A stretch of 44,387 nucleotides of DNA from assembly GCF_009469695.1 (NCBI RefSeq), contig NZ_SSSR01000024.1:1-44387 (forward strand), in the 5' to 3' direction. This DNA is from Propionivibrio limicola. GTDB lineage: Bacteria; Pseudomonadota; Gammaproteobacteria; Burkholderiales; Rhodocyclaceae. Positions 162-44,322 of this stretch are shown piece after piece (within the stretch, counting starts at the first letter, position 1; each line of letters opens with the position of its first letter). The notes beneath the pieces are model-generated. The model worked only from the letters and a program-made list of their open reading frames with translations. It was not told the origin of the DNA and ran no database searches. The translations under genes were made by a program, and so were the position numbers.

Positions 162-1253
162 TCAGGTGTTCTGAATGACGATGTTGGGGAACTTCCCGCT
201 CACGTCCTTGGCGCGCTCGGCCACCTTGACGGCAACGCGGCGGGCAATCGCCAGATACAACTCGGCGGCTCGCGAATCCGGCGCGCCAACCACGGTCGGC
301 TTGCCGGTATCGGCCATTTCGCGGATCGCCAGTTCGAGCGGCAGGGCGCCGAGCAGTTCAGTGCCGTAATCCTTGCACATCTGCTCGCCGCCGCCCTGCC
401 CGAAGATGTGCTCTTCGTGGCCGCACTTCGAGCAGATGTGGATGCTCATGTTTTCGATCAGGCCGAGGATCGGAATGCCGACCTTCTCGAACATCTTGAG
501 CCCCTTGCATGCGTCGATCAGCGCGATGTCCTGCGGCGTGGTGACGATCACCGCACCGGTCACCGGCACCTTCTGCGCCAGCGTCAGCTGCGTGTCGCCG
601 GTCCCCGGCGGCATATCGACGATCAGGTAGTCGAGTTCCTTCCAGTTCGTCTGGTTGAGCAGTTGCTCAAGCGCCTGCGTGACCATCGGGCCGCGCCAGA
701 CCATCGGCGAATCGACATCGACCATGAAGCCGATCGACATCGTCTGCACGCCGTACGTCGTGATCGGCTCCATCGACTTGCCGTCGCGCGTATCGGGCTG
801 ACGGCCGGCCAGACCGAGCATTTGCGGCACGGAGGGGCCGTAAATGTCGGCATCGAGCAGGCCGACCGAAGCCCCTTCCCGCGCCAGCGCCAGCGCCAGA
901 TTGACGGCCGTCGTGCTTTTGCCGACGCCGCCCTTGCCGGAAGCGACGGCGATGATGTTCTTGACGCCAGGCAACGGCTTCAGATTGCGCTGTACGGCGT
1001 GCGCCACGATATTGACTGACACGTTGGCTTCCACGCTGCCGACACCGGGCACCGCCTTGACCGCCGACTCCACGGCAAGGCGGATCGGCTCGAGCTGCGT
1101 CTTGGCCGGATAGCCGAGTTCGATATCGAGGGTGACCTTGTCACCGTCCACCTTGATGTTCCTGGCCGACCGCGTCGACACGAAATCCTTTTGCGTGTTG
1201 GGATCAATCAATCCCTGCAGCGCGGCCTGCACCGCCTCAATCGTTACTGCCAT
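162..1253 (-). CDS. apbC: Iron-sulfur cluster carrier ATPase, Mrp/NBP35 family (ApbC)
   Basis: A 363-residue protein that carries or transfers [4Fe-4S] clusters to apo-proteins in the cytoplasm. Residues 1-85 form a MIP18/DUF59 domain. A deviant Walker A GKGGVGKST lies at 106-114, the Mrp segment DADIYGPSVPQMLG follows, and the CSKC cluster-binding pair is at 274-277. The ATG is preceded by AAGGAG at good spacing (minus strand, about 1260-1265). It is divergent from metG, an arrangement common in betaproteobacteria. The family assignment is firm; the client proteins are not visible here. Confidence 0.96.
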   Translation of the reverse strand: MAVTIEAVQAALQGLIDPNTQKDFVSTRSARNIKVDGDKVTLDIELGYPAKTQLEPIRLAVESAVKAVPGVGSVEANVSVNIVAHAVQRNLKPLPGVKNIIAVASGKGGVGKSTTAVNLALALAREGASVGLLDADIYGPSVPQMLGLAGRQPDTRDGKSMEPITTYGVQTMSIGFMVDVDSPMVWRGPMVTQALEQLLNQTNWKELDYLIVDMPPGTGDTQLTLAQKVPVTGAVIVTTPQDIALIDACKGLKMFEKVGIPILGLIENMSIHICSKCGHEEHIFGQGGGEQMCKDYGTELLGALPLELAIREMADTGKPTVVGAPDSRAAELYLAIARRVAVKVAERAKDVSGKFPNIVIQNT

Positions 1254-1326
1254 TGCTGACTCCTTGTTGAAATACCCGAGTAATTTTGTCCAGCTTAACC
1301 GAAAAACGGGAGGTGCTGCACTTTGC

Positions 1327-1332
1327 TAGAAT
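1327..1332 (+). promoter_or_regulatory. Candidate extended -10 of metG
   Basis: TGCTAGAAT resembles an extended -10 (TG-n-TAGAAT). It lies about 70 nt before the metG ATG in the apbC/metG divergent gap. No good -35 is seen. Confidence 0.35.
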
Positions 1333-1402
1333 GCGCATTCTGCCGCAAACGGCTCGCGCCGTTGCCGCGCAACCTCGACAATTTCAGACTGCACACCGTC
1401 CC

Positions 1403-3499
1403 ATGACCCGAAAAATCCTTGTCACGTCCGCCCTGCCCTATGCCAATGGCGCCATCCATCTCGGCCACCTCGTCGAATACGTCCAGACCGATATCTGGGT
1501 GCGTTTCCAGAAGATGCAACCGAAGGACAAGGTCGCCGAATGCTGGTACGTCTGCGCCGACGACACGCACGGCACGCCGATCATGCTGCGCGCCGAAAAG
1601 GACGGCATCACACCCGAGGCGCTGATTGCCCGCGTGCATGGCGAGCACTTTCGCGATTTCTCGGGTTTCCACATCGCGTTCGACAACTACTACAGCACGC
1701 ACTCGCCGGAAACGCAGGAATGCGCCAACACGATTTACGGCCGCCTGCAGAATGGGCAACTGATCGAGAAGCGCACCATCGAGCAATACTATGACCCGGT
1801 CAAGCAGATGTTCCTGCCGGACCGCTTCATCAAGGGCGAATGCCCGAAGTGCCACGCCAAGGATCAATACGGCGACAACTGCGAAGTCTGCGGTGCCGCC
1901 TATGCGCCGACCGACCTGATCGAACCGTTTTCGGCCGTCTCCGGCGCCAAGCCGGAACTGCGTAATTCCGACCATTACTTCTTCAAGCTCTCCGACCCGC
2001 GCTGCGAAGCCTTCCTGCGCCAGTACACCAGCAGCGGCGTGCTGCAGAACGAGGCCGCCAACAAGATGCAGGAATGGCTCGGCGCCCCCGGCGACAACAA
2101 GCTGACCGACTGGGACATTTCGCGCGACGCACCCTATTTCGGCTTCGAGATCCCCGGCGCACCGGGCAAGTATTTCTACGTCTGGCTCGACGCGCCGATC
2201 GGCTACATGGGCTCGTTCAAGAATCTGTGCGCGCAAAAGGGCATCGACTTCGACGAATACTGGAAACCGGACAGCACGACCGAGCTTTACCACTTCATCG
2301 GCAAGGACATTCTCTACTTCCACGCCCTGTTCTGGCCGGCCGAACTGGCGCACGCCGGTTTCCGCACGCCGAAAGGCATCTTCGCGCACGGTTTCCTGAC
2401 CGTCGACGGCTCAAAAATGTCCAAGTCGCGCGGCACCTTCATCACCGCCGAGAGCTACCTGACCACCGGCCTCAACCCGGAATGGCTGCGCTACTACTAC
2501 GCCGCCAAGCTGAACAGCACGATGGAAGACATCGACCTCAACCTCGAAGACTTCGTCGCCCGCGTCAACTCCGACCTCGTCGGCAAATACGTCAACATCG
2601 CCAGCCGCTGCGCCGGCTTCATCGGCAAGAAATTCGACGGCCAGCTGGCCAGCACCGATGCCGCCTGGCTCAAGCCGCTGCGCGATGCCGCTACCAACCT
2701 CGGCGAAGCCTACGAGGCCCGCGAATACAGCCGTGCCCTGCGCGAGATCATGGCGCTGGCCGACGTTGCTAACGTCTTCGTCAACGACAAAAAACCGTGG
2801 GAACTGGCCAAGCAGGAAGGCAAGGAAGCCGAACTGCATGCCGCCTGCTCGGAAGCCATCGAAGCCTTCCGCCTGCTGACGCTGTACCTGAAACCAGTGC
2901 TGCCGACCGTAGCCGCCGCCGTCGAAGCCTTCCTCAACATCGCGCCGCTCTGCTGGACCGACGCCGCCACCGCGTTGCCGGCCGGCCACACGATCAACGC
3001 CTACAGCCACCTGATGACGCGTGTCGATCCGAAGCTGATCACTGCGCTGGTCGAAGCCAATAAAGCTTCGCTCGCGCCTGCCGTCGAAGCCGCACCGCAG
3101 AAGCACGCCGAGAAGCAGGAAAAAGCCGCCGAAGTCGCCAAGGCGGCTGCGGAGGCCGGTCCGCACATCAGCATCGACGACTTCATGAAAGTCGATCTGC
3201 GCATTGCCAGGATCGTCGATGCCGGCCACGTCGAAGGCGCCGAAAAGCTGATCCGCCTCTCGCTCGACATCGGTGAAGAGAAACCTCGACAAGTCTTCGC
3301 CGGCATCAAGTCAGCCTACGACCCGGCCACGCTGATCGGCCGCATGACGGTCATGGTCGCCAACCTCGCGCCGCGCAAGATGAAATTCGGCATGAGCGAA
3401 GGCATGGTGATGGCCGCGTCCGACACCGACGGCAAGACCTCCGGCCTCTACCTTCTCTCGCCCGACTCTGGAGCCCAGCCCGGCATGCGCGTAAAATAA
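1403..3499 (+). CDS. metG: Methionyl-tRNA synthetase
   Basis: A 698-residue class I aminoacyl-tRNA synthetase that charges tRNA-Met. The frame opens further upstream, but ATG 1403 ([16 protein letters not shown]) is the start that matches the family. The HIGH motif is HLGH, the zinc knuckle has cysteines in CPKC and CEVC, and the KMSKS loop is present as [10 protein letters not shown]. An Ala/Lys/Glu-rich linker leads to a C-terminal EMAP-type tRNA-binding domain beginning around [16 protein letters not shown], so this is the long dimeric form. A strong terminator-like hairpin lies 25 nt after the stop, inside the next small gene. Confidence 0.97.
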
Positions 3500-3841: not shown

Positions 3842-5848
3842 ATGCGCGAATGGCAGGAAATTCACTGGATTCTTTTGCTCGTCCTCGGCTGGATCGGCCT
3901 GGGCGTGACCGGCCTCTTCGCCGCCCGCTGGTTCACCTTCGTGACACGCGTCCTCTTCCCGCTCGGCGCGGCCAACGGCCTGCTGCTCGCGCTGCTCGCC
4001 CTGACAGGCATGATGACCGGCCCGCAGGAAGCCATCCTGCCGTTCGGCCTGCCCGACCTGCCGTTCCACGTCCGCCTCGACGCGCTATCTGCCTTTTTCC
4101 TGCTCATTCTCGGCGCCGCCACGGCCGGCGTTTCGATCTACGCGTCCGGCTATTTCCGGCGCGAACAGGGCGCCTCGCCCGGCCTGCATTGTCTGCTCTA
4201 TCACGTCTTCCTCGCCGGCATGGCCTTCGTCATGCTCGCCAATGACGCTTATGCCTTCATGGTCGCCTGGGAAACGATGGCGCTCGCCTCGTACTTTCTC
4301 GTCATCTCGGAGCACCGCCATGCCGAAATCCGCCGCGCCGGTTATCTTTTCCTGCTGATCGCCCACGTCGGCTCGGTCGGCATCCTGCTCTCGTTCGGGG
4401 TGATGGCCGGCAGCACCGGCGATTACACCTTCGACGCGATGCGCGCCTTCGACGGCGGTACATTCTGGGCGACCGCCGCCTTCCTGCTCGCCCTGTTCGG
4501 CTTCGGCGCCAAGGCCGGGCTGCTGCCATTGCACGCAGGCCTGCCGGGAGCCGACGTCGCCGCCCCGTCGCCAGTCGCGGCGCTGATGAGCGGGGTCATG
4601 GTCAAGACGGCGATTTACGGCACGCTACGCATCAGCTTCGACCTGCTCGGCACGCGGCTCTGGTGGTGGGGCGTGCTCGTCATCGCGCTCGGCCTGATCA
4701 CCGCCCTGTTCGGCGTCATCTTCGCCGCCGTGCAAAGCGACATGAAGCGGCTGCTCGCTTATTCCTCGATCGAAAACATCGGCCTGATCTACGCCGGCAT
4801 CGGCCTCACGCTCGTTTTCCACGCCTTCGCCATGAGCAACTTCGCGGCACTGGCGCTGACGGCAACGCTCTACCACTGCATCAACCACGCCTTTTTCAAG
4901 ACACTGCTCTTCCTGTGCACCGGCTCGGTCCTGCATGCGACCGGCGAACGCAACCTCGGCAAGCTGGGCGGACTGATCCGCCACATGCCCTGGGTTTCCT
5001 GGCTGGCGCTGATCGGCATCCTCGGCGCCGCCGGCCTGCCGCCGCTCAACGGCTTTGTCTCCGAATGGCTGCTTCTGCAAGGCTTCCTGTTCACGCCCGG
5101 CCTGCCGCACGGTTATCTCAACATGCTGCTGCCGATCGCCGCCGCGACCATCGCGCTGACCGCCGCGCTGGCCGGCTACACGATGGTCAAATTTTTCGGC
5201 GTCACTTTCCTCGGCCAGCCACGCGAAGAACGCCTGTCGCAGGCCCGCGATGTCAGCCGCCTGAAGCGCATCGGCCTGCTTTGGCTGGCCAGCGGCTGCG
5301 TCCTGCTCGGCTTGCTGCCGAACATCGTCATCTCGCTGCTCGAACCGGTCACCAGCCTGCTCGTCAGCCAGGGACGCCAGCTCAACGCGGGCATGGAAAA
5401 CTGGTGGCTGCTCGCCCCGATCAGCGAGGACCGCGCCAGCTACAGCCCGGCCATTTTCTTCGGCGGCATCCTGCTGCTGATCGGCGCGGCCTACCTGTGC
5501 ATCAAACACGCCTTTCCGGCCGCCACGACGCGCGGCCCGGCCTGGGACTGCGGCTTTCCGATGCAGGACGGGCGCATGCAGGACACGGCCGAAGGCTTCA
5601 GCCAGCCGATCCGGCGCATCTTCTCGCCCTTCTTCCGCCGCACGTGCGAACTGCCGTCGCCGTTCGACCGGCAGCCGCATTACCGCAACATCGTCGAAGA
5701 TCCGTTCTGGTACTGGCTCTATCTGCCCATCGCGCGACTCGTCGACCTCGTCTCGCGCTTTGTCGCCTTCCTGCAGCACGGGCGTATCGCCGTGTATCTG
5801 ATGTACAGCTTCATTACGCTGCTCACCCTGCTCGTTTTGACCCGCTGA
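3842..5848 (+). CDS. hyfB: Hydrogenase-4 component B-like proton-pumping subunit
   Basis: A 668-residue polytopic membrane protein of the NuoL/MrpA-like antiporter family, specifically the HyfB/HycC branch of group 4 hydrogenases and relatives. The family core is visible in SDMKRLLAYSSIENIGLIYA, the conserved lysine segment FGAKAGLLPLHAGLPGADVA and GAAGLPPLNGFVSEWLL. The C-terminal third resembles the HyfB-specific extension ending near the membrane. GTAAGGAG lies about 10 nt before the ATG. It is the first gene of a six-gene operon (hyfBCEFGI) and would form part of the ion-translocating arm in the inner membrane. Confidence 0.9.
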   Translation: MREWQEIHWILLLVLGWIGLGVTGLFAARWFTFVTRVLFPLGAANGLLLALLALTGMMTGPQEAILPFGLPDLPFHVRLDALSAFFLLILGAATAGVSIYASGYFRREQGASPGLHCLLYHVFLAGMAFVMLANDAYAFMVAWETMALASYFLVISEHRHAEIRRAGYLFLLIAHVGSVGILLSFGVMAGSTGDYTFDAMRAFDGGTFWATAAFLLALFGFGAKAGLLPLHAGLPGADVAAPSPVAALMSGVMVKTAIYGTLRISFDLLGTRLWWWGVLVIALGLITALFGVIFAAVQSDMKRLLAYSSIENIGLIYAGIGLTLVFHAFAMSNFAALALTATLYHCINHAFFKTLLFLCTGSVLHATGERNLGKLGGLIRHMPWVSWLALIGILGAAGLPPLNGFVSEWLLLQGFLFTPGLPHGYLNMLLPIAAATIALTAALAGYTMVKFFGVTFLGQPREERLSQARDVSRLKRIGLLWLASGCVLLGLLPNIVISLLEPVTSLLVSQGRQLNAGMENWWLLAPISEDRASYSPAIFFGGILLLIGAAYLCIKHAFPAATTRGPAWDCGFPMQDGRMQDTAEGFSQPIRRIFSPFFRRTCELPSPFDRQPHYRNIVEDPFWYWLYLPIARLVDLVSRFVAFLQHGRIAVYLMYSFITLLTLLVLTR

Positions 5849-5860
5849 TCGACTGAACCG

Positions 5861-6814
5861 ATGAACCTCCACGCCCTCTTCGCCCAACTGCTCGAACTTC
5901 TGCTGGCGCTGCTGCTGGCGCCGGTGCTGGTCGGCTGGATCAACCAGTGCCGCGCCTGGCTGCAGAACCGTTCGGCGCCGCCCTTGCTGCAGCCGTGGTA
6001 CACGCTGAACAAGCTGTTCCGCAAGGAAGTGCGGCTCGCAGACAACGCCTCGTCGCTGTTCCGCGCCGCGCCCTACATCGTCTTTTCCTGCATGGCGCTG
6101 GCCGCGGCCGTCGTGCCGACGCTGTCGACCGAACTCATCTTCTCGCCGGCCGCCGACGCAATTGCGCTGGTCGGCCTGTTTTCACTCGCCCGCGTGTTCA
6201 TCGCACTGGCCGGCATGGATGTCGGCACGGCATTCGGCACGATGGGCTCGCGCCGCGAAATGCTGATCGGTTTTCTCGCCGAACCGGCCCTGCTGATGGT
6301 GTTCTTCACCGCCTCGCTGATTTCGCGCTCGACGTCGCTCGCCACCATCGTGCAGACGCTGGCCCACAGCGAGTTCGTCATCTACCCGAGCCTGGCTTTT
6401 GCCGGCATCGCCTTCGTCATGGTGCTGCTCGCCGAGAATGCTCGCGTGCCGGTCGACAACCCGAGCACGCACCTCGAACTGACGATGATCCACGAGGCGA
6501 TGATCCTCGAATATTCGGGCCGTCATCTGGCCCTCTTCGAATGGGCGTCGAGCCTCAAGCTGTTCGCCTATTCGTGCCTCGGCATCGCGCTCTTCTTCCC
6601 GTTCGGCATTCCCGAGTCGTCCGGATTTCTTGCCCTGTTCACGGCCGGCGGGACGATGCTGCTCAAGCTGATTGGCGGCGGCTTCGGCCTCGCCCTGATC
6701 GAAACGCTGAGCGCCAAGATGCGCGTCTTCCGCGCTCCGGAATATCTCGGCACGGCCTTCCTGTTCGCCGTGCTGGCCATGCTCGTGCACCTCTTGCTGG
6801 AGACCGGCGCATGA
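5861..6814 (+). CDS. hyfC: NuoH/HyfC-like membrane anchor subunit
   Basis: A 317-residue membrane protein homologous to complex I NuoH and HycD/HyfC, which connects the hydrophilic redox module to the membrane. The diagnostic stretch RVPVDNPSTHLELTMIHEA, with its loop acidic residues, is intact and is followed by MILEYSGRHLALFEWASS. About eight hydrophobic segments are seen. It starts 12 nt after hyfB and its stop overlaps the hyfE start as ATGA, indicating translational coupling. Confidence 0.9.
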   Translation: MNLHALFAQLLELLLALLLAPVLVGWINQCRAWLQNRSAPPLLQPWYTLNKLFRKEVRLADNASSLFRAAPYIVFSCMALAAAVVPTLSTELIFSPAADAIALVGLFSLARVFIALAGMDVGTAFGTMGSRREMLIGFLAEPALLMVFFTASLISRSTSLATIVQTLAHSEFVIYPSLAFAGIAFVMVLLAENARVPVDNPSTHLELTMIHEAMILEYSGRHLALFEWASSLKLFAYSCLGIALFFPFGIPESSGFLALFTAGGTMLLKLIGGGFGLALIETLSAKMRVFRAPEYLGTAFLFAVLAMLVHLLLETGA

Positions 6815-7491
6815 CCGAAACCGCCATCCTGCCGATCCCGCTGAGCGGCCAGCTGATCAACCTGTGCGCCGCGCTGATGCTGCTGCTCGGCTTCGCCATG
6901 CTGGCGCAACGCCGCATCCTGACGCTGATCAATCTGTTCATGCTGCAAGGCGGCGCGCTATTCGCCTCGACCGTCATCGCCGCGCATTCGACCGGCCAGC
7001 ACCACCTCTACTGGTCGGCGGCGATCACGCTGCTGCTCAAGGTGATCGGGCTGCCGTGGATCCTGCACCGGCTGATCCGGCGACTGTCGGTCAAATGGGA
7101 CGTCGAGACGCTGCTCAACATCCCGACGACAATGCTGATCGGCATCGTGCTCGTCGTCATCTCGTTCAACGTCGCGCAGCCGATCTCGCAGCTCTCCGGC
7201 ACGATCATGCGCGCCACGATCGGCATCGCGCTCGCCTGCACGCTGCTCTCGTTCCTGATGATGATCACGCGCAGCAAGGCCGTGCCGCAGGTGATCGCCT
7301 TCCTGGCCATGGAAAACAGCCTGTTCTTTGCCGCCACCAGCGCCACCTACGGCATGCCGATGGTCGTCGAACTGGGCATCGCGCTCGACGTGCTGGTCGG
7401 CATGGTCATCCTCGGCGTGTTCTTCTTCCAGATCCGCGAGCAATTCGACAGCCTCGACATCCGGCAGATGGAAAAGATCAAGGAGGAATGA
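6811..7491 (+). CDS. hyfE: HyfE-like membrane subunit (NuoK-related)
   Basis: A 226-residue protein with about six or seven hydrophobic helices, the HyfE type of membrane subunit found in group 4 hydrogenases and Ehr complexes. Its second half resembles NuoK, with the segment FLAMENSLFFAATSATYGMP carrying the in-membrane glutamate. The chosen ATG overlaps the hyfC stop (ATGA). The frame is open far upstream, but that part is a shadow of hyfC. The protein presumably sits between HyfC and the antiporter-like subunits. Confidence 0.88.
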   Translation: MTETAILPIPLSGQLINLCAALMLLLGFAMLAQRRILTLINLFMLQGGALFASTVIAAHSTGQHHLYWSAAITLLLKVIGLPWILHRLIRRLSVKWDVETLLNIPTTMLIGIVLVVISFNVAQPISQLSGTIMRATIGIALACTLLSFLMMITRSKAVPQVIAFLAMENSLFFAATSATYGMPMVVELGIALDVLVGMVILGVFFFQIREQFDSLDIRQMEKIKEE

Positions 7492-7496
7492 CCGGC

Positions 7497-8954
7497 ATGA
7501 TCGAATTGGCACTTGTTCTGACGATTCCGCTGGCGACGGCGCTGGTCCTCGCCCTCTGGGGCCACCGCGCCTGTGCTGCGCTGATCAACGCCGGCGGCGG
7601 ACTGCTGACGCTCGTCGCCGCTGGCGCGCTAACCTGCCGCGTCATCAACGAAGGAAACCTGACACTGTTCAGCGACCAGTTCTACGTCGACCCGCTCAAC
7701 GTTTTCCTGATCGCGCTGACGGCGCTGGTCGGCTTCACGACGGCGCTCTTTTCCCAACCCTACATGCGCGTCGAACACGACGAAGGCAAGCTTTCCGGCG
7801 GACGCCTGCGCCTCTACCACAGCATGTTCCAGCTCTTCATGGCGGCCATGCTGGTTGCGCTGTCGACCAACAACCTCGGCATTCTGTGGGTGTCGATGGA
7901 AGCGGCAACGCTGACGACGGTGCTGCTCGTCGCGCTCTACCGCACGCCGGAGAGCCTCGAAGCGGCGTGGAAGTACTTCATCCTGTGCGGCGTCGGCATC
8001 GCCCAGGCGCTGTTCGGCACCATCCTGCTCTACTTCGCCGCCGAACGCGTGCTCGGCCATGCCGGCGGCGCCTTGCTGTGGACGAACCTGAGCGTCGTGC
8101 GGGCCTCGCTCGAACCGACCATCCTGTCGCTCGCCTTCGTTTTCCTGCTCGTCGGCTACGGCACCAAGACCGGCCTCGTGCCGCTGCACAGCTGGCTGCC
8201 CGACGCCCACGCCGAAGGCCCGACGCCGGTTTCCGCCGTGCTCTCCGGCCTGCTGCTCAACGTCGCCCTGTACGCCATCATCCGTTGCAAGGTGCTCGTC
8301 GACGGCGCACTGGGGACGCATTTCGCCGGCAACCTGATGATGGGTTTCGGGCTGCTCACCGTCGTCGTCTCGGCGTTTTACCTGTCGCGGCAGCGCGACA
8401 TCAAGCGCCTGTTCGGCTATTCGTCGATCGAACACATGGGGCTGATCACCTTCGCCTTCGGCATGGGCGGCCCGGTCGCCAGCTTCGCCGGACTGCTGCA
8501 CATGACCGTGCATTCGCTGACCAAGTCGGCGATCTTCTTCGCCGTCGGCCACGCCGCGCAAATGGCCGGCACCAAGGTCATCGAGGACATTCGCGGCCTG
8601 ATCAAGCGCTCGCCGACCATCGGCTGGGGGCTGATGCTCGGCACGCTGGCCATCCTCGGCATGCCGCCGTTCGGCGTATTCACCAGCGAATTCATGATCC
8701 TGACCACCGCGATCAAGCACTACCCTTGGGCCACGCCGCTCCTGCTCGCCGCGCTCGGCGTCGCCTTCGCCGCCATGTTCGGCAAGGTGCAGGAAATGGC
8801 CTTCGGCGAACCGACCGTAAAACCGCTCGCCCACAACCCGGCGCTGCTGCCGGTGTTCATCCACCTCGGGCTGGTGCTGATGCTCGGGCTGTGGATTCCG
8901 CCCTACCTCGCCGACTGGTACCGGCAGGCGGCGCAACTGGTCGGCCAAGGATGA
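7497..8954 (+). CDS. hyfF: HyfF-like antiporter subunit (NuoN/MrpD family)
   Basis: A 485-residue polytopic antiporter-like subunit, the second one in this operon. Recognisable pieces are GYGTKTGLVPLHSWLPDAHA (broken-helix lysine region), DIKRLFGYSSIEHMGLI and LGMPPFGVFTSEFMIL. ATG 7497 is chosen because AAGGAGG at 7480-7486 is 10 nt away. ATG 7488, overlapping the hyfE stop, is in frame but too close to that site. Together with HyfB it gives two putative ion channels in the complex. Confidence 0.9.
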   Translation: MIELALVLTIPLATALVLALWGHRACAALINAGGGLLTLVAAGALTCRVINEGNLTLFSDQFYVDPLNVFLIALTALVGFTTALFSQPYMRVEHDEGKLSGGRLRLYHSMFQLFMAAMLVALSTNNLGILWVSMEAATLTTVLLVALYRTPESLEAAWKYFILCGVGIAQALFGTILLYFAAERVLGHAGGALLWTNLSVVRASLEPTILSLAFVFLLVGYGTKTGLVPLHSWLPDAHAEGPTPVSAVLSGLLLNVALYAIIRCKVLVDGALGTHFAGNLMMGFGLLTVVVSAFYLSRQRDIKRLFGYSSIEHMGLITFAFGMGGPVASFAGLLHMTVHSLTKSAIFFAVGHAAQMAGTKVIEDIRGLIKRSPTIGWGLMLGTLAILGMPPFGVFTSEFMILTTAIKHYPWATPLLLAALGVAFAAMFGKVQEMAFGEPTVKPLAHNPALLPVFIHLGLVLMLGLWIPPYLADWYRQAAQLVGQG

Positions 8955-10540
8955 ACGACATGAGCGAAACCGCGCAATTCTTCGACCTGCCCATCACGTT
9001 CACGCGGCAGCCCGAGCATGTGTTCCCGGCCTGGGAAGCCGAAGCGGACGAAGCCGCACTGGAAGAATTCTGCATCGCCGCCCACCGCGCCGGACGGCGG
9101 CTCGTCGCCCTCTGGGGTTGCGACAAGCGCGATCGCCAGCCGGACGTTCCCGCACGCGGCTTCGCCCTGCACGTTGCGCTCGACCTCGCGGAAGGACTGG
9201 CCTGCTTGACGCTGCCGATGGACGCCTGCGCGCCGCGCTTCCCCGACCTCGCGCCCATTTTCCCGAGCGCCGGACGGCTGCAACGCGCCGTGCGCGACAT
9301 GATCGGCGCCGAACCGGTGTCCAGCGAATACCCCACCGACCTGCGCCCGTGGCTGCGCCACGCCAACTGGCCGGCCGACTACTTCCCGCTCCGCCACGAC
9401 ACTCCCGATGCCAGTTTTCCCGCGCAGAACGAAACGTACGGCTTCGTGCGCGTTGACGGCGACGGCGTGCACGAAGTCGCGGTCGGCCCGATCCACGCCG
9501 GCGTCATCGAGCCGGGGCATTTCCGCTTCTCGGCGATGGGCGAGCGCGTGCTGCGCCTCGAAGAGCGCCTCGGCTGGAAACACAAGGGAATCGAACGGCG
9601 CTTTGTCGGCATGGCGCTGGCCGAAGGCGCCCGCCTCGCCGGCCGCGTCTCCGGCGACACCACCGTCGCCTACGCCTGGGCTTACAGTCAGGCGGCCGAA
9701 GCGATCGCCGGCGTCACGCCGCCGGCCCGCGCGATCTGGCTGCGCGCCCTGCTGCTGGAGCGCGAACGCATCGCCAACCACCTCGGCGACCTCGGCGGCA
9801 TGGCCAACGACGTCGCCTTCAGCTTCGGCCTGATGCAGTTCTCGCGCCTCAAGGAAGACTGGCTGCGCCTCAACGCCCGCCTGTTCGGTCACCGCTACCT
9901 GATGGACCGGATCGTACCGGGCGGCATCGCCATCGACCTCAGCGCATCGGGCGCGGCCGAACTCATCGAGCAGTGCGACACCATCCAGCGTGAAGTGCGC
10001 GCGCTGAAAGCGATCTACGACGAGCACGCCGGATTGCAGGACCGCTTCCTCACCACCGGCCACTTGGCGCCGGAACGCGCCAGACAACTTGGCACCATCG
10101 GCCTCGTTGGGCGCGCCAGCGACCAGCACTGGGATCTGCGCGTCGATCACCCCTGTGCGCCTTACGACGAATTGGAAACGCGCGTCGCCACACACGCAAA
10201 CGGCGACGTGGCGGCCCGAGCGCTGGTGCGCTTCGCCGAGCTCAATGAATCGCTGCATCTGATCCGCAAGATTTTAAGCGGCATGCCGTCCGGCGACATC
10301 CGTTGCGACGTGCGCAGCGCTCCCGAGCGGCGCGGATTCGGCTGGATCGAAGGCTGGCGCGGCGACGTGCTGGTGATGGTGGAGACGGGGCTGGACGGCA
10401 AGATTCGCCGCTGCCATTGCCACGACCCGTCCTGGCACAACTGGATCGCACTTGAACACGCCGCCATCGACAATATCGTTCCCGACTTCCCGGTGATCAA
10501 CAAGTCGTTCAATCTCTCCTACGCAGGACCGGATCTTTAA
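8951..10540 (+). CDS. hyfG: Large-subunit homologue (NuoCD/HyfG-like) lacking all [NiFe] cysteines
   Basis: A 529-residue fusion: residues about 1-170 are a NuoC-like 30-kDa domain (FPDLAPIFPSAGRLQRAVRD) and the rest is a NuoD/[NiFe]-hydrogenase large-subunit domain. The proximal motif expected as RVCGIC is RVSGDT at 232-237, and the following His is Tyr. The distal DPCxxC is DPSWHN at 492-497. All four nickel ligands are therefore absent, so H2 chemistry is not expected. The C-terminus continues to NKSFNLSYAGPDL with no sign of a cleaved tail. ATG 8951 overlaps the hyfF stop; ATG 8960 is in frame and better spaced from AAGG. The domain calls are firm; the substrate is unknown. Confidence 0.9.
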   Translation: MNDMSETAQFFDLPITFTRQPEHVFPAWEAEADEAALEEFCIAAHRAGRRLVALWGCDKRDRQPDVPARGFALHVALDLAEGLACLTLPMDACAPRFPDLAPIFPSAGRLQRAVRDMIGAEPVSSEYPTDLRPWLRHANWPADYFPLRHDTPDASFPAQNETYGFVRVDGDGVHEVAVGPIHAGVIEPGHFRFSAMGERVLRLEERLGWKHKGIERRFVGMALAEGARLAGRVSGDTTVAYAWAYSQAAEAIAGVTPPARAIWLRALLLERERIANHLGDLGGMANDVAFSFGLMQFSRLKEDWLRLNARLFGHRYLMDRIVPGGIAIDLSASGAAELIEQCDTIQREVRALKAIYDEHAGLQDRFLTTGHLAPERARQLGTIGLVGRASDQHWDLRVDHPCAPYDELETRVATHANGDVAARALVRFAELNESLHLIRKILSGMPSGDIRCDVRSAPERRGFGWIEGWRGDVLVMVETGLDGKIRRCHCHDPSWHNWIALEHAAIDNIVPDFPVINKSFNLSYAGPDL

Positions 10541-10549
10541 GGCGCCCAC

Positions 10550-11122
10550 ATGATTCCGATACTCAGGCAGATTTTCCGCACCGGCATCGTCAGCGAACCG
10601 CTGCCGCCCGCCGATGAAGCGCTGCGCGCCGCCACGCAACGGCTCTCGGCCGCGATCACCGAACACCTCGGCCGTGCGCTCGTCATCCGCCACGTCGATG
10701 CCGGCTCCTGCAACGCCTGCGAACTCGAAATCCACGCGCTCGGCAACCCGTACTACAACATCGAGGCGGCCGGCATCAAATTCGCCGCCAGCCCGCGCCA
10801 CGCCGACATGTTGCTCGTCACCGGGCCGGTCGCCAAGAACATGGAAGTTGCGCTCAAGCGCGCCTACGACGCGATGCCGGAACCGAAACTCGTCGTCGCC
10901 GCCGGCGACTGCGGCTGCACCGGCGGCATTTTTGGCGAGAGCTACGCCTGCTGCGGCCGCGTCGCCAACGTCCTGCCCGTCGACGTCAGCATTCCCGGCT
11001 GCCCGCCGACACCGCTGCAACTGATCGAAGGCATCCTGGCCGCGATTTCGCCCGGAACAACGCTGTCGACGTCGCGATCGATAGACCGCTCAACAATGAG
11101 CGCCCCTGGAAGCAACGGTTAA
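10550..11122 (+). CDS. hyfI: NuoB/HyfI-like iron-sulfur small subunit
   Basis: A 190-residue homologue of NuoB and the small subunit of group 4 hydrogenases. Cysteines for an N2-like proximal [4Fe-4S] cluster are present: C54 and C57 in SCNACELE, C121/C123 in GDCGCTGG and C151 in PGCPP. An extra CC pair occurs at 134-135. This subunit therefore still looks redox-competent although its HyfG partner has lost its nickel site. It is the last gene of the operon. No ferredoxin-type (HyfA/HyfH), formate dehydrogenase or hyp maturation gene follows. Confidence 0.9.
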   Translation: MIPILRQIFRTGIVSEPLPPADEALRAATQRLSAAITEHLGRALVIRHVDAGSCNACELEIHALGNPYYNIEAAGIKFAASPRHADMLLVTGPVAKNMEVALKRAYDAMPEPKLVVAAGDCGCTGGIFGESYACCGRVANVLPVDVSIPGCPPTPLQLIEGILAAISPGTTLSTSRSIDRSTMSAPGSNG

Positions 11123-11208: not shown

Positions 11209-11886
11209 TTACTTCGGCCGCGCGCCGGTCGGGAAAGGCCAGGCGCCCGTTGGATTGAGCGCCGACTTGAGTCCGGGAGTGGCGGCCGTCGACGGCCGGG
11301 CCTTCGCCGGCGCCTCAGCAGCTTCCGTCTTCTTGGTAACGCCTTTGGCGGCCGGCTTTTCGGCCTTGACCTTTTCCGTCTTGGCTGTTTTGGGGGCAGC
11401 AGACTTCTCTGCAGCTTTTTCAGCCGTTTTCTTTTCGGTGGTCTTCGCCTTACTCGCCGCTGATTTTTCAGCACCTGCCTTCGGCGCCGCCTTGGTTACG
11501 CTTTTTTTCGCCGGGACGGCTTTCTTGGGATCGGCGGCAACGGCTTCCTTGCTTGACGTTTTGGGGACGGCGGAGGCCTTCGTCTTGGCGACCGGCGTTG
11601 CCGCGACAGTCGTCTTCGTCGCTGCCGTTTTTTCCACAACGGCTTTCACGGCGGGCGCCTTGGCGACTTTCTTGACGGCAGGCTTTTTCACGGCGGGGGC
11701 CTTGGTCGTGGTTTTCTTTTCGACGGCCGGTGCAGGCTTGGCCGCTTCCGTATCGACCTTGCCCGGCGTCGGCTTTGCTGCCTTGCTGACGGCCGACTTC
11801 GTTGCCGCCGTTTTCGCATCGACCGTCGTCGTCTTTTTGGCGGCGGGTTTAGCCGCGGCTACGGGTTTCTTCGCACTTGTTGCCAT
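11209..11886 (-). CDS. Histone H1-like Ala/Lys/Pro-rich protein
   Basis: A 225-residue, strongly basic, low-complexity protein made of AAKPAAKK, KKPAVKKVAK and similar blocks, like bacterial H1 homologues and AlgP-type proteins that bind DNA and compact the nucleoid. The frame opens upstream to 12228, but ATG 11886 has AAAGGAGG 5 nt before it and begins MATSAKKP. The last 20 residues (around LNPTGAWPFPTG) are not low-complexity and contain the only Trp, suggesting a conserved end tag. Target and role are inferred from composition only. Confidence 0.85.
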   Translation of the reverse strand: MATSAKKPVAAAKPAAKKTTTVDAKTAATKSAVSKAAKPTPGKVDTEAAKPAPAVEKKTTTKAPAVKKPAVKKVAKAPAVKAVVEKTAATKTTVAATPVAKTKASAVPKTSSKEAVAADPKKAVPAKKSVTKAAPKAGAEKSAASKAKTTEKKTAEKAAEKSAAPKTAKTEKVKAEKPAAKGVTKKTEAAEAPAKARPSTAATPGLKSALNPTGAWPFPTGARPK

Positions 11887-12188
11887 GTAACCTCCTTTGC
11901 TGATGTCAAGGGGACTGCTCGCTGCAACGCTGCAAGACCGGCGACCTGCGCGGGCCAATGAAGGAACACGCTTCCGGTGAAGGAAATCCGTAAGAGACTG
12001 GTCGAAGATAACGTCGCCAACCTTCCGCACGGCTGGCCGGTTACGCTGGATTCTAGTGATCGCCAAGTGCTTGATGCAAGAGGAATTTTGCCAATTCCTC
12101 CGGCATTGTCTCGACTTGTCGCAATTCGGCGACGTGGCGCTCCAGCAAAAACCGATCGCATATCGAAAAGAAACAATGGATACGCCGC
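11887..12188. other. Spacer between the uvrD 3' end and the H1-like gene
   Basis: About 300 nt with the H1-like promoter candidate and its long leader. A short + frame from 12056 runs into uvrD on the opposite strand, has no ribosome site and is not accepted as a gene. Confidence 0.4.
12050..12079 (-). promoter_or_regulatory. Candidate sigma-70 promoter of the H1-like gene
   Basis: On the minus strand TTGCAT (12079-12074) and TAGAAT (12055-12050) are 18 nt apart. They would give a leader of about 155 nt before ATG 11886. Confidence 0.4.
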
Positions 12189-14393
12189 TCAAGCCGGCGT
12201 CAGCTTGGCATATTCGAGCGCCAGCCATTTCATGCCGTGCGCGCCGAAATTCACCTGCACGCGCGCATCGCCGCCCCGGCCCTCGGAGGAAACGATGACG
12301 CCCTGCCCGAACTTGGCGTGCTGCACGCTCTGGCCGATGCGGAAGCCGCCGACGCTCTCGCTGCCGGCGCGAGATACGCGCGCTGACGAAGCAGGCGAGG
12401 CCACCGATTTGGCCGGCGCGGCGGCATAGGTCGCCGCATGGCCGACCTTGCGCAACAGCTCCTCCGGCAATTCCTCGAAAAACGCGGACGGCAGGCAGTA
12501 GCGCGTCTGGCCGTGCAGCATGCGCGTTTGCGCGTGCGTCAGGTACAAGCGTTTGCGGGCGCGCGTCACCGCGACATACATGAGCCGCCGCTCTTCTTCG
12601 AGCCCGTCCCGCTCCTGCGTGGAGTTGTCATGCGGGAACAGCCCGTGCTCCAGGCCGGTGATGAACACAACATCGAATTCCAGCCCCTTGGCGGCATGCA
12701 CGGTCATCAGCTGCACCGCCTCCTGCCCCTCGCCGGCCTGATGTTCCCCGGCCTCGAGCGACGCATGCGCGAGGAAAGAGGCCACCGGATTGGTCTGCGC
12801 CGGATCGACAGCCATCCCCGATGCCGCCTCGCCCTCTTCCTGCACGAAGCTGGTCGCCGCGTTGATCAATTCGTCGAGGTTTTCCAGCCGCTCGCGCCCT
12901 TCTTTTTCGGCCAGGTAATGCTGACGCAGGCCGCTCTTTTCGATCAGATGCTCGATGATTTCGGGCAGCGGCAGGTTTTCCGTCTCGGCGCGCAAGGTTT
13001 CGATCAGCCGGATGAAGTTGCCAACCGCCGCGCCAGCCTTGCCGGAAAGGCTGGCGGCGGCGTTGTACAAACTCGAATTGGCGCGGTGCGCCGCTTCCTG
13101 CAAGGCTTCGAGGCTGCGGCTGCCGATGCCGCGCGTCGGGAAATTGACGACGCGCGAAAACGCCGTGTCGTCGTCGGGATTGGCGAGCAGACGCAGATAA
13201 GCCAGCGCGTGCTTCACCTCCTGCCGGTCGAAGAAGCGCAGACCGCCATAGACGCGGTACGGCACGCTCGCCGTGAATAGCTGGTGTTCGAGTACGCGCG
13301 ACTGGGCGTTCGAGCGGTAAAGCAGCGCGATCTGGTTGCGCGGGAAACCGTCGCGCACGAGCTCGCGCACTTCGTCGACGACAAAGCGCGCTTCATCGAG
13401 GTCGGAGAATCCTTCGAACACGCGGATCGGCTCGCCCGCCCCGGCATCGGTCCACAGGTTCTTGCCCAGACGGCCGCGGTTGTTCTTGATCAACGCATTG
13501 GCCGCATCGAGGATGTTGCCGTGCGAACGGTAGTTTTGCTCAAGGCGAATGACATTCTTGACGGCGAACTCGCGCTCCAGATCGCGCATGTTGCCGACCT
13601 CGGCGCCGCGGAAGGCGTAGATCGACTGGTCGTCGTCGCCGACGGCGAAAAGGCAGGCGCCATTGGCCAGCGGCTCGGCGCCGTCGTGGCCGGCCAGCAG
13701 CTTGAGCCAAGCATATTGCAGGCGGTTGGTGTCCTGGAACTCGTCGACGAGGATGTGCCGGAAACGCTCCTGGTAGTGGCGGCGCAACGGCTCGTTGCGC
13801 ACCAGCAGTTCATAGGTGCGCAGCAGCAGTTCGGCAAAGTCGACAACGCCCTCGCGCTGGCATTGCGCGTCGTATTCGGCGTACAGCTCGACGCGCCGGC
13901 GCGTGTAGTCGTCATAGACCTCGGCCTGCGCGGCGCGAATGCCCTGCTCCTTGTGCGCGTTGATGAAATGCGCCAGCTCGCGCGGCGGGAATTTTTCCTC
14001 ATCGACGTTGAGATTCTTCAAGAGGCGCTTGATCGCCGAAAGCTGGTCGGCCGAGTCGAGAATCTGGAACAGCGCCGGCAGACCAGCCTCACGGTGATGC
14101 GCGCGCAACAGGCGGTTGCACAAGCCATGGAAGGTGCCGATCCACATGCCGCGCGTATTGATCGGCAGCATCGCCGAAAGGCGCGCCAGCATCTCCTTCG
14201 CCGCCTTGTTGGTGAAGGTCACGGCCAGAATGCCGTGCGGCCCGACCTGCCCGGTCGAAATCAGCCAGGCGATGCGCGTTGTCAGTACGCGCGTCTTGCC
14301 GCTGCCGGCGCCGGCCAGGATCAGCGCATGCTGCGGCGGCAGGGTGACGGCGGCAAGTTGTTCGGGGTTCAGGTTGGCGAGGAGGTCGGACAT
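12189..14393 (-). CDS. uvrD: UvrD/Rep-type superfamily 1 DNA helicase
   Basis: A 734-residue ATP-dependent 3'-5' helicase, most like UvrD (helicase II) of nucleotide excision and mismatch repair. Walker A GAGSGKT is at 28-34, the Q-motif region LNPEQLAAV is near the N-terminus, motif II VDEFQDTN is at 216-223, and motif III GDDDQSIYAFRGA follows. LMTVHAAKGLEFDVVF and VAVTRARKRLYLTHAQ are motifs V and VI. The C-terminal tail (VQHAKFGQGVIVSSEGRG) is the UvrD/PcrA-type Tudor-like end, which favours UvrD over Rep. Confidence 0.93.
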   Translation of the reverse strand: MSDLLANLNPEQLAAVTLPPQHALILAGAGSGKTRVLTTRIAWLISTGQVGPHGILAVTFTNKAAKEMLARLSAMLPINTRGMWIGTFHGLCNRLLRAHHREAGLPALFQILDSADQLSAIKRLLKNLNVDEEKFPPRELAHFINAHKEQGIRAAQAEVYDDYTRRRVELYAEYDAQCQREGVVDFAELLLRTYELLVRNEPLRRHYQERFRHILVDEFQDTNRLQYAWLKLLAGHDGAEPLANGACLFAVGDDDQSIYAFRGAEVGNMRDLEREFAVKNVIRLEQNYRSHGNILDAANALIKNNRGRLGKNLWTDAGAGEPIRVFEGFSDLDEARFVVDEVRELVRDGFPRNQIALLYRSNAQSRVLEHQLFTASVPYRVYGGLRFFDRQEVKHALAYLRLLANPDDDTAFSRVVNFPTRGIGSRSLEALQEAAHRANSSLYNAAASLSGKAGAAVGNFIRLIETLRAETENLPLPEIIEHLIEKSGLRQHYLAEKEGRERLENLDELINAATSFVQEEGEAASGMAVDPAQTNPVASFLAHASLEAGEHQAGEGQEAVQLMTVHAAKGLEFDVVFITGLEHGLFPHDNSTQERDGLEEERRLMYVAVTRARKRLYLTHAQTRMLHGQTRYCLPSAFFEELPEELLRKVGHAATYAAAPAKSVASPASSARVSRAGSESVGGFRIGQSVQHAKFGQGVIVSSEGRGGDARVQVNFGAHGMKWLALEYAKLTPA

Positions 14394-43307: not shown

Positions 43308-44322
43308 TTAGCCGCCTGCTAACCGCTTGCGCAACTCTTTTGTGGAAACGTCATCAATATGCCGAAATGCGGGAGCAATCTTGACCAGCTCGTGGTCGGG
43401 AACTCCAGATTGGTCGAAGTACGCTCGCCACTGACGCACGACTCGCCAGACCTCATCTATCAACAGGCAGGCAGTTTCCAGAGACAGCGTGAATTTGCCG
43501 TGAGCCGCAAGCGCATTGTCGAGCGTAGCCATTCTGCCCTGCGGTCCGACGCCCAGATGCAAAAAAACGCTCGGTCGCATGGCTCGCGCGAGGCAATACG
43601 TCATAAAGAGGACTGAGCCTCCAGCCTGGCAATCTGGGGTCCCAAACGAAACCATGATTGCGGAGATGGTCATCGTCGTTGCTAACGAAGATGTTAAACA
43701 CCATGCGCTTAAACAGTTCTTCATTGTTTTGCCGGATGATGGACGGATGACAGTAACGGCGTACCGCCTCGGCCAAGTCGGCGTAGGACTTTGTACGTGA
43801 CTCCGATTCATCGCACGCCACCAGCGTCAGGCCGCTGACAAAGCCCATCCGGTGTTCGACACGGCCATTACCAGGACCGTCGGCCAGCAGGTCGGCATCG
43901 GGGGCGGGTGCAGTATCCGGGGTTACCCAGTAACGGTCAAAGCGCCGAATGAGCATGATTCGTCGGTGGCCAAGCATCATGGTGCGTACGGGCGGCACGT
44001 TCAACCCGGTCTGACTAGCCAATTGCAATGCGGCGCACTCGATGGCGGGCACATCGAACACATCATGCCGGCTGGCGAATTTGGCCAACCACAGCACCCC
44101 GGCCTCATCCCGTATTGATGCCTTTGGGCGTGCTCCGCCCAGCGCGGTGCCGTCCATGAAAATAGCTTCAAGGTGTGCAGGGATAGGCAGCCCTTCTTCG
44201 ATACGCTCTGCCGCCTCCATGAGGTGAGCCAGAGTGTGCCAGCCGCTGACTCCGATAGCAGGGCTATCTTGAATACTCGTTGTCAACGGCGATTCAAAAC
44301 TGACACACCCCGGACACTTCAT
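43308..44322 (-). pseudogene. HipA-family toxin kinase, 5'-truncated and frameshifted
   Basis: Frame one (to 43453) carries the HipA core: DGTALGGARPKASI, LIRRFDR, the catalytic loop SNDDDHLRNHGFVWD and LSPLYDVLP. At a run of seven A (43561-43567, T7 on the coding strand) the frame breaks; the other frame then continues LHLGVGPQGRMATLDNALA down to FRHIDDVSTKELRKRLAGG, the normal HipA C-terminus. One fewer T would restore the frame. The N-terminal subdomain (about 100 residues in intact HipA) is absent, and no hipB is seen. It could be a sequencing error plus truncation, or true decay. Confidence 0.8.

What the first reader, a model, noticed from the sequence alone, without database searches (positions are those of the whole stretch)
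8951..10540. Hydrogenase-like large subunit with every [NiFe] ligand replaced
RVCGIC is RVSGDT (residues 232-237) and DPCxxC is DPSWHN (492-497), while the fused NuoC domain, the rest of the NuoD fold and the partner cluster subunit (C54, C57, C121/C123, C151) are kept. This is the hallmark of energy-converting-hydrogenase-related (Ehr) complexes, known from comparative genomics but without an established electron donor or acceptor. The complex should couple an unknown redox reaction to ion pumping.
Basis: partly seen in the sequence, partly recalled or inferred. Interest (0 to 1): 0.7.

Follow-up and report, generated by a model that had tools for sequence, protein, structure and literature searches.

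The report
Hydrogenase-like pump without its metal site
The window carries a six-gene membrane complex related to hydrogenases and respiratory complex I that has lost the nickel-iron site, and in some related CO2-fixing bacteria its genes sit beside genes for bicarbonate-type transporters, carbonic anhydrase and RuBisCO, which gives a testable clue to what such complexes do.

Summary
The gene at 8951-10540 is a HyfG/HycE-type large subunit (best PDB match E. coli HycE, E 9.6e-59) without any [NiFe] cysteine. RVCGIC is RVSGDT (232-237), as reported. The second motif was misplaced: DPSWHN (492-497) aligns about 30 residues before DPCYSC; the true columns are N521-L522-S523-Y524-A525-G526. The replacement is conserved in relatives, R[VI]SGD[ST] ... 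NLSYSG. The operon hyfB-C-E-F-G-I keeps one [4Fe-4S] ligand set and pump residues but no HyfA/D/H: an Ehr complex, a known family of unknown function. New here: in the same order, Ehr co-occurs with RuBisCO (76 of 103 against 73 of 296 genomes), and SulP lies within 10 kb in 25 of 96 Ehr genomes, 1.4 expected, often with carbonic anhydrase or cbb genes; 0 of 37 background stretches carry such genes. I propose that Ehr energises inorganic-carbon uptake (0.37). Against: the window's locus is not so linked; metG, presumably unrelated, is nearly as frequent a neighbour (21 of 87 loci against SulP 22); 27 of 103 Ehr genomes lack RuBisCO; a tree-corrected test could not decide.

The parts
3842..5848 (+). 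hyfB: NuoL/MrpA-type antiporter-like subunit, 668 aa
   Evidence: PF00361 E 4.1e-50; E144, K224, K302, H349, E408 invariant in 133 of 133 aligned relatives
5861..6814 (+). hyfC: NuoH-like membrane anchor subunit, 317 aa
   Evidence: PF00146 E 1.8e-35; E141, D199, E206, E217 and a family-specific H204 invariant in 145 of 145
6811..7491 (+). hyfE: small membrane subunit, 226 aa, no Pfam match at E 0.001
   Evidence: position in the operon and tblastn relatives next to hyfC/hyfF
7488..8954 (+). hyfF: second antiporter-like subunit (ATG 7488 overlaps the hyfE stop; residue numbers in this report count from 7494)
   Evidence: PF00361 E 3.5e-52; E136, K225, K304, H340, E399 invariant in 148 of 148
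8951..10540 (+). hyfG: NuoC-NuoD-type large subunit without [NiFe] ligands, 529 aa
   Evidence: AlphaFold2 model mean pLDDT 85.4, best fold match 7z0s_E HycE TM 0.80
9644..9661 (+). site of the RVCGIC ligand motif: RVSGDT (residues 232-237)
   Evidence: alignment to HycE/HyfG/NuoCD; D236 in 158 of 158 relatives
10424..10441 (+). DPSWHN (492-497): family signature HxHDPSWxNW, not a ligand motif
   Evidence: aligns with HycE AATYAN / NuoCD TPSFAH
10511..10528 (+). true site of DPCxxC: NLSYAG (residues 521-526) at the C-terminus
   Evidence: aligns with DPCYSC; N521 156, Y524 157, G526 154 of 158
10550..11122 (+). hyfI: NuoB-like subunit with one [4Fe-4S] ligand set C54, C57, C121, C151
   Evidence: PF01058 E 2.1e-29; the four Cys 142 of 142
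162..1253 (-). context: mrp/apbC (NUBPL-type Fe-S carrier), neighbour, not claimed as a subunit
   Evidence: PF10609 E 1.7e-105
1286..3499 (+). context: metG (methionyl-tRNA synthetase), upstream neighbour
   Evidence: PF09334 E 1.5e-144

Best explanation
The six genes 3842-11122 encode an Ehr complex: a two-antiporter-module membrane arm (HyfB, HyfF, with HyfC and HyfE) under a small cytoplasmic foot (HyfI with one [4Fe-4S] cluster, HyfG with a remodelled pocket). It cannot be a [NiFe] hydrogenase and is probably not a plain quinone reductase, because the pocket has lost both the [NiFe] cysteines and the complex I tyrosine (G235) while keeping an Asp shared with complex I (D287) and having an invariant Asp of its own (D236). 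Shown: composition, loss of ligands, conservation, and in some relatives operon-like linkage to SulP/SLC13-type transporters, carbonic anhydrases and RuBisCO operons. Inferred: the complex exchanges electrons through the cluster with a soluble or quinone partner, and its ion translocation is used, in Calvin-cycle bacteria, to accumulate inorganic carbon, either by energising the neighbouring bicarbonate-type transporter or by driving one-way CO2 hydration with a carbonic anhydrase docked on the membrane arm, as cyanobacterial NDH-1MS (recalled) and the DAB complexes do with other parts.
For: Ehr x RuBisCO in 399 genomes: 76/103 against 73/296, odds ratio 8.6, P 1.6e-18; by genus 38/53 against 24/106, P 4e-9. 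SulP (PF00916) within 10 kb of hyfG in 25 of 96 Ehr genomes searched, 1.4 expected (distances recomputed), in 8 family codes. CsoSCA-like carbonic anhydrase in 20 of 399 genomes; of the 8 that also have Ehr, 6 have it within 10 kb of hyfG. A SulP/SLC13-type transporter or gamma-carbonic anhydrase gene lies on the same strand within 1.5 kb upstream of hyfB in 35 of 168 loci; 0 of 37 background stretches (0.69 Mb) held any of these genes or cbb genes. In clustering of neighbours without a query SulP was the largest cluster, 23 of 87 loci. G014, G243, G347 and G291 have cbb genes within about 7 kb of the operon. The gamma-CA matches Cam-type carbonic anhydrases and aligns over their zinc histidines (ligand identity recalled). 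Methanotroph loci have a different SulP. Pump residues intact.
Against: The window's own operon stands between metG and an H1-like gene; its genome has RuBisCO and SulP on other contigs. 45 of 72 labelled order loci are not linked. metG is beside Ehr in 21 of 87 order loci, never together with SulP, and in none of 37 background stretches: a recurrent neighbour need not be a partner. 12 of the 20 genomes with the CsoSCA-like gene have no Ehr. 27 of 103 Ehr genomes lack form I/II RuBisCO. Linkage and RuBisCO among Ehr genomes (26/27 against 27/45, P 6e-4) gave only 4 independent pairs on the tree, which cannot reach significance. The P values treat related genomes as independent. SulP substrates are unknown; the nearest solved relative of one is a plant sulfate transporter.
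Confidence: 0.37

Rival explanations
1. General redox-driven ion pump: the complex passes electrons from an unidentified soluble donor (for instance a formate dehydrogenase, as proposed for other Ehr) through the HyfI cluster to quinone or another acceptor; proximity to carbon genes only reflects an autotrophy region or a common insertion site.
For: Single [4Fe-4S] ligand set invariant, D287 shared with complex I, fold closest to HycE and NuoCD; FDH-Ehr proposal seen in passages of PMC6349859; 27 of 103 Ehr genomes lack RuBisCO; metG is nearly as frequent a neighbour as SulP.
Against: I recognised no FDH, ferredoxin or flavin gene by eye among the 40-45 largest neighbour clusters printed (these were not all annotated); no HyfH/HyfA in the operon; the quinone-site tyrosine column is Gly; does not explain SulP and carbonic anhydrase directly before hyfB.
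Confidence: 0.34
2. Reverse electron transport for autotrophy: the complex uses the ion gradient to push electrons uphill (quinol to ferredoxin or NAD(P)) for the Calvin cycle of chemolithotrophs.
For: Strong co-occurrence with RuBisCO; intact pump residues.
Against: No NADH- or ferredoxin-binding subunit in the operon; the genome also has a NuoD-type gene (G000:C11); the recurrent partners are transporters and carbonic anhydrases.
Confidence: 0.15
3. The neighbouring SulP is a sulfate carrier and Ehr serves sulfur metabolism in sulfur oxidisers.
For: PF00916 includes sulfate permeases; the best PDB relatives of one linked SulP are plant sulfate transporter 4.1 and prestin; some hosts are named as sulfur oxidisers (Thiobacillus, Sulfuritalea; physiology recalled).
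Against: gamma-CA (9), CsoSCA-like CA (6) and cbb genes (5) occur among the 27 linked order loci; methanotroph and Gallionella-titled loci are linked too.
Confidence: 0.08
4. Sequencing error or decaying hydrogenase gene.
For: None beyond the loss of cysteines.
Against: 183 of the 184 Ehr-like sequences aligned lack at least three ligands (the other is not covered at the second site), with conserved replacement residues over many genera; all six frames are open.
Confidence: 0.01

Closest known systems
Ehr complexes (Marreiros et al. 2013, seen only as a reference; passages in PMC6349859, PMC10284858, PMC12342949, PMC6728331 seen)
   Same: Group-4-hydrogenase/complex I subunits, no [NiFe] ligands, antiporter-like subunits kept
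   Different: This clade has six genes without a ferredoxin-type subunit and, in several lineages, linkage to inorganic-carbon genes, which my searches did not find described
Formate hydrogenlyase / hydrogenase 4 (hyc, hyf of E. coli)
   Same: Gene content and order of hyfB, C, E, F, G, I; HycE is the nearest solved relative
   Different: No HyfA, HyfD, HyfH, HyfJ; ligands lost; large subunits with intact RICGIC/DPCFSC occur in the same order (L249, L250, L253)
Cyanobacterial NDH-1MS (CupA/B, recalled) and DAB/DAC complexes (DAB2: PMC13144422, passages seen)
   Same: NuoL-family membrane subunits tied to CO2 hydration or inorganic-carbon accumulation
   Different: No CupA/B or DabA found among the window proteins scanned; Ehr keeps a NuoB/NuoD foot with cluster ligands; any CO2 role here rests on gene linkage only

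Membership tests
Ehr complex | large subunit homologous to group 4 hydrogenases/NuoD | tested here: met
   phmmer HycE E 9.6e-59, MBH alpha 9.1e-24; Foldseek 7z0s_E TM 0.80
Ehr complex | [NiFe] cysteine ligands absent | tested here: met
   RVSGDT and NLSYAG at the ligand columns; no CxxC in the protein
Ehr complex | NuoB-like subunit with [4Fe-4S] ligands | tested here: met
   C54, C57, C121, C151, 142 of 142
Ehr complex | NuoH-like and antiporter-like membrane subunits with pump residues | tested here: met
[quoted passage not shown]
   FastTree of 191 sequences rooted on one NuoD; branch supports were not examined
[NiFe] hydrogenase group 4 | four Cys ligands of the [NiFe] site | tested here: not met
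Respiratory complex I | quinone-site Tyr of NuoD (recalled) and NADH/NuoI modules | tested here: not met
   G235 at the NuoCD Tyr column; no NuoE/F/G/I-type gene between hyfB and hyfI
NDH-1MS or DAB-type CO2 uptake complex | CupA/B or DabA subunit | tested here: inconclusive
   none among the 28 window proteins scanned with Pfam; the rest of the genome was not searched for them
NDH-1MS or DAB-type CO2 uptake complex | drives inorganic-carbon accumulation | not testable with these tools
   only gene linkage and co-occurrence

The most novel reading that the evidence does not exclude
The six-subunit Ehr complexes of Proteobacteria are a third kind of complex-I-derived inorganic-carbon machine, next to NDH-1MS and DAB: a cluster-bearing ion pump that powers bicarbonate uptake or one-way CO2 hydration together with a SulP/SLC13-type transporter and a gamma- or CsoSCA-like carbonic anhydrase.
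Probability: 0.28. Interest if true: 0.88.

Novelty: new member of a known kind. Interest (0 to 1): 0.58.

Why it matters
Ehr complexes are reported from many lineages, and the passages seen assign them no established function. Here their genes were found, in some lineages, in apparent operons with transporter, carbonic anhydrase and RuBisCO genes, which turns an open question into a simple test: delete the operon in a linked autotroph and grow it at low and high CO2. If right, the inorganic-carbon toolkit of chemolithoautotrophs gains a component; in the 2024 review of that toolkit (PMC10880623) the terms hydrogenase, complex I, NDH and Nuo have 0 occurrences. Names such as 'putative formate hydrogenlyase', used for the Nitrospira Ehr (PMC12342949, passage), would then mislead.

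Tried and rejected
Sequencing error or frameshift: rejected, the site is conserved. Ligands elsewhere: no CxxC in the protein; the DPSWHN placement was replaced by the C-terminal site. Formate dehydrogenase or ferredoxin partner of the main type: none recognised by eye among the largest neighbour clusters printed. Need for [NiFe] maturation: HypD is absent from 43 of 103 Ehr genomes; in the window's genome HypD lies near a separate [NiFe] hydrogenase. Tree-corrected test of linkage against RuBisCO: too few pairs. First AlphaFold2 run was poor (mean pLDDT 67.4), the second better (85.4), but residues 507-517 and 521-529 stay under 50, so no pocket geometry is claimed. A metal site made of D236, H489, H491 and D492 was an idea that I could not test and dropped. 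One Pfam query (L058:2000-4493) gave no family because I cut it out of frame. Literature: searches showed me no paper, by listing or passages, linking Ehr/Hyf to inorganic-carbon genes; listed papers were not all opened, and the library lacks most subscription papers and bioRxiv.

Choices that bear on counts: 'Ehr positive' = 103 of the 110 matching genomes, after I left out seven with only distant matches (G004, G139, G177, G190, G208, G270, G313); two of the 103 (G260, G356) have only a roughly 47%-identical type. SulP was searched in 96 of the 103 (left out: G006, G011, G126, G164, G257, G260, G356); the 25 near cases were picked by eye from the listed coordinates and their distances recomputed. 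RuBisCO form I/II = E at or below 1e-100 (149 of 182 matching genomes). In some searches a linked locus counted whatever its flank, an unlinked one only with enough flank. Query proteins for searches came from loci already seen to be linked, so those counts are not blind; the Pfam search and the clustering did not use them. One search kept the best 80 of 581 loci. Loci L041/L146 and L076/L169 look like the same species fetched twice.
Full report
Check of the observation. The frame 8951-10540 (+) gives 529 residues with PF00329 (30 kDa, E 2.7e-7) and PF00346 (49 kDa, E 4.2e-33) domains. Its nearest solved relative is HycE of E. coli formate hydrogenlyase (7z0s_E, E 9.6e-59), before complex I 49-kDa subunits (best 3.4e-24) and MBH alpha (9.1e-24). 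RVCGIC is RVSGDT (232-237). In the HMMER alignment HDPSWHNW lies opposite RAATYANW of HycE, and SFNLSYA lies opposite SLDPCYS of HycE. The alignment of 158 relatives with E. coli HyfG, HycE and NuoCD (sequences) shows the same: the DPCYSC columns are N521 L522 S523 Y524 A525 G526.

Conservation. In 191 large-subunit sequences the commonest pair of sites is RVSGDS/NLSYSG (64), then RISGDS/NLSYSG (30). Five have intact ligand motifs: HycE and HyfG of E. coli and three copies from the same order (L249, L250, L253, RICGIC/DPCFSC). The first copy in L063 reads RICGVC/ELCYSC; one is the genome's own NuoD (L252). Of the other 184, 175 have none of the four cysteines, seven keep only the first, one (second copy of L062) only the second, and in L058 the second site is not covered. 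D236 and D287 are invariant (158 of 158), as are H182, H277 and D280; N517, K518, S519 and Y524 are kept in 157. The NuoCD Tyr column is Gly (G235) here as in HycE; D287 is Asp in NuoCD and Phe in HycE/HyfG. That these columns are the quinone-binding Tyr and a coupling Asp of complex I is recalled.

The complex. The neighbours in the operon are hyfB, C, E, F and I; Pfam matches all but HyfE. HyfI keeps C54, C57, C121 and C151 in 142 of 142; C123 is not a ligand by conservation. Charged residues aligned with pump residues of NuoL/M/N/H (positions recalled) are invariant: HyfB E144, K224, K302, H349, E408 (133 of 133), HyfF E136, K225, K304, H340, E399 (148 of 148, numbered from nt 7494), HyfC E141, D199, E206, E217 (145 of 145). 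Not all aligned positions are kept: NuoL D178 and D400, NuoM E108 and NuoH E216 columns differ. HyfC H204 is invariant where E. coli HyfC and NuoH have Glu. HyfA, HyfD, HyfH and HyfJ, present in E. coli, are missing. An AlphaFold2 model (70 sequences, mean pLDDT 85.4) matches HycE best (TM 0.80); the C-terminal site is not confidently modelled.

Distribution. In 399 genomes of the same order 110 have a match at E <= 1e-40; I count 103 as this Ehr type. HypD, needed for [NiFe] maturation (recalled), is absent from 43 of the 103. The window's genome has HypD, near a separate [NiFe] hydrogenase on contig 14, and a NuoD-type gene.

Linkage to inorganic carbon. Flanks of relatives showed, in G014 and G243, SulP - hyfBCEFGI - CsoSCA-like carbonic anhydrase - a long sensor-like gene - LysR type - cbbL - cbbS - cbbQ; in G347 SulP - gamma-CA - hyfBCEFGI - spermidine-synthase-like - cbbO - cbbQ - cbbS - cbbL; in G150 SLC13-type - gamma-CA - hyf, with the CsoSCA-like gene at the far end. 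Pfam: PF00916 E 9.8e-114, PF20686 E 2.5e-7, hexapeptide 4e-17, PF00016 2.5e-137, PF08406 4.2e-35, CitMHS 6.6e-28; the names LysR, cbbS, cbbO and sensor are from reading the sequence. PDB: the gamma-CA matches Cam-type carbonic anhydrases and CcmM (E 1.7e-31 to 1.2e-19), the other CA matches carboxysomal CsoSCA weakly (6e-5), the SulP matches plant sulfate transporter 4.1 best (4.2e-97) and other SLC26-family proteins.

Tests. (a) Co-occurrence with form I/II RuBisCO: 76/103 against 73/296, P 1.6e-18; by genus 38/53 against 24/106, P 4e-9. (b) SulP by Pfam profile in 96 of the 103 genomes: in 25 it lies within 10 kb of hyfG; 1.4 expected, tail 2e-25, in eight family codes (f1, f15, f24, f34, f35, f43, f45, f50). 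(c) CsoSCA-like CA, searched with the copy from G014: 20 of 399 genomes; 8 of them carry Ehr and 6 of these have it within 10 kb, 12 have no Ehr. (d) Clustering of neighbours in 87 loci: the SulP cluster is the largest, 23 loci; gamma-CA 9, CsoSCA-like 6, Mrp 14 (several large clusters look like antisense frames and were not resolved). (e) Same-strand transporter or gamma-CA within 1.5 kb upstream of hyfB: 35 of 168 loci; none of these genes in 37 background stretches, 0.69 Mb. (f) Of 72 labelled order loci 27 are linked: SulP 22, gamma-CA 9, CsoSCA-like 6, cbb 5, SLC13 2; of 83 copies in the titled set 12 are linked. On the tree of 191 sequences the linked state needs at least 10 changes for 124 labelled rows (200 shuffles: 26 or more), so it is clustered but arose or was lost repeatedly; methanotroph loci (L103, L104, L109, L112) have another SulP type.

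Results against. The window's locus is not linked: mrp and metG upstream, a histone-H1-like gene and a uvrD-like helicase downstream (uvrD name from reading the sequence). RuBisCO in its genome is on contig 13 and SulP on contigs 4 and 22. metG lies beside Ehr in 21 of 87 order loci and 33 of 168 loci in all, never in a locus with SulP, and in no background stretch; as I know of no function that joins a tRNA synthetase to Ehr, recurrence alone does not prove partnership. What sets the carbon context apart is that several unlike genes of one process recur. 45 of 72 labelled loci are unlinked. 27 of 103 Ehr genomes have no form I/II RuBisCO. Linked loci lie in RuBisCO genomes in 26 of 27 cases against 27 of 45 (P 6e-4), but on the tree only 4 independent pairs exist and the test cannot reach significance. 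All P values treat relatives as independent.

Reading. The account I favour, narrowly, is an Ehr ion pump whose output is used, in autotrophs, for inorganic-carbon acquisition; a general redox pump is almost as likely. The redox partner, the direction of pumping and a physical link to transporter or carbonic anhydrase are inferred. DAB2 couples a NuoL-like subunit to one-way CO2 hydration (PMC13144422, passages). The 2024 toolkit review (PMC10880623, passages) speaks of SulP, SbtA, DAC and NADH-dehydrogenase-associated CA. Other papers, by passages, call Ehr function unknown (PMC12342949, PMC10284858, PMC6728331) or propose FDH-Ehr (PMC6349859). A formate hydrogenlyase gene cluster is described in Sideroxydans (PMC5178258, passages); whether it is Ehr I did not check.

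Verdict. The window's complex is a new member of a known family; the linkage in its relatives is the interesting part and makes an open question testable.

Noticed in passing
L063:2208-3605: A tandem operon in which the first large subunit keeps all four cysteines as RICGVC/ELCYSC, a possible intermediate between hydrogenase and Ehr, before a cysteine-free Ehr operon.
   Followed up: partly
L119 (G132), L062, L132 (G358): Two different Ehr operons in tandem: the main type next to a roughly 45-47% identical type (in L132 the second copy is seen only as hyfB-F).
   Followed up: no
L246:11274-12142 and L251:12436-13156: More distant Ehr-like operons lie beside small genes that look like CrcB fluoride channels and DUF190 proteins (names from reading the sequence, not Pfam-tested).
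   Followed up: no
window 5861-6814: HyfC H204 is invariant (145 of 145) where E. coli HyfC and NuoH have Glu, a family-specific change.
   Followed up: partly
window 11212-12228 (-): Lys/Ala-rich protein resembling histone H1-like HC2 (PF07382 E 2e-5, below its cut-off) directly after hyfI.
   Followed up: no
window 162-3499 and neighbours of relatives: The mrp-metG site is a second recurrent context of the Ehr operon (metG in 21, Mrp in 14 of 87 order loci); metG never coincides with SulP there.
   Followed up: partly
window 43456-44322 (-): HipA C-terminal domain protein (PF07804 E 5.4e-41) at the window's end.
   Followed up: no
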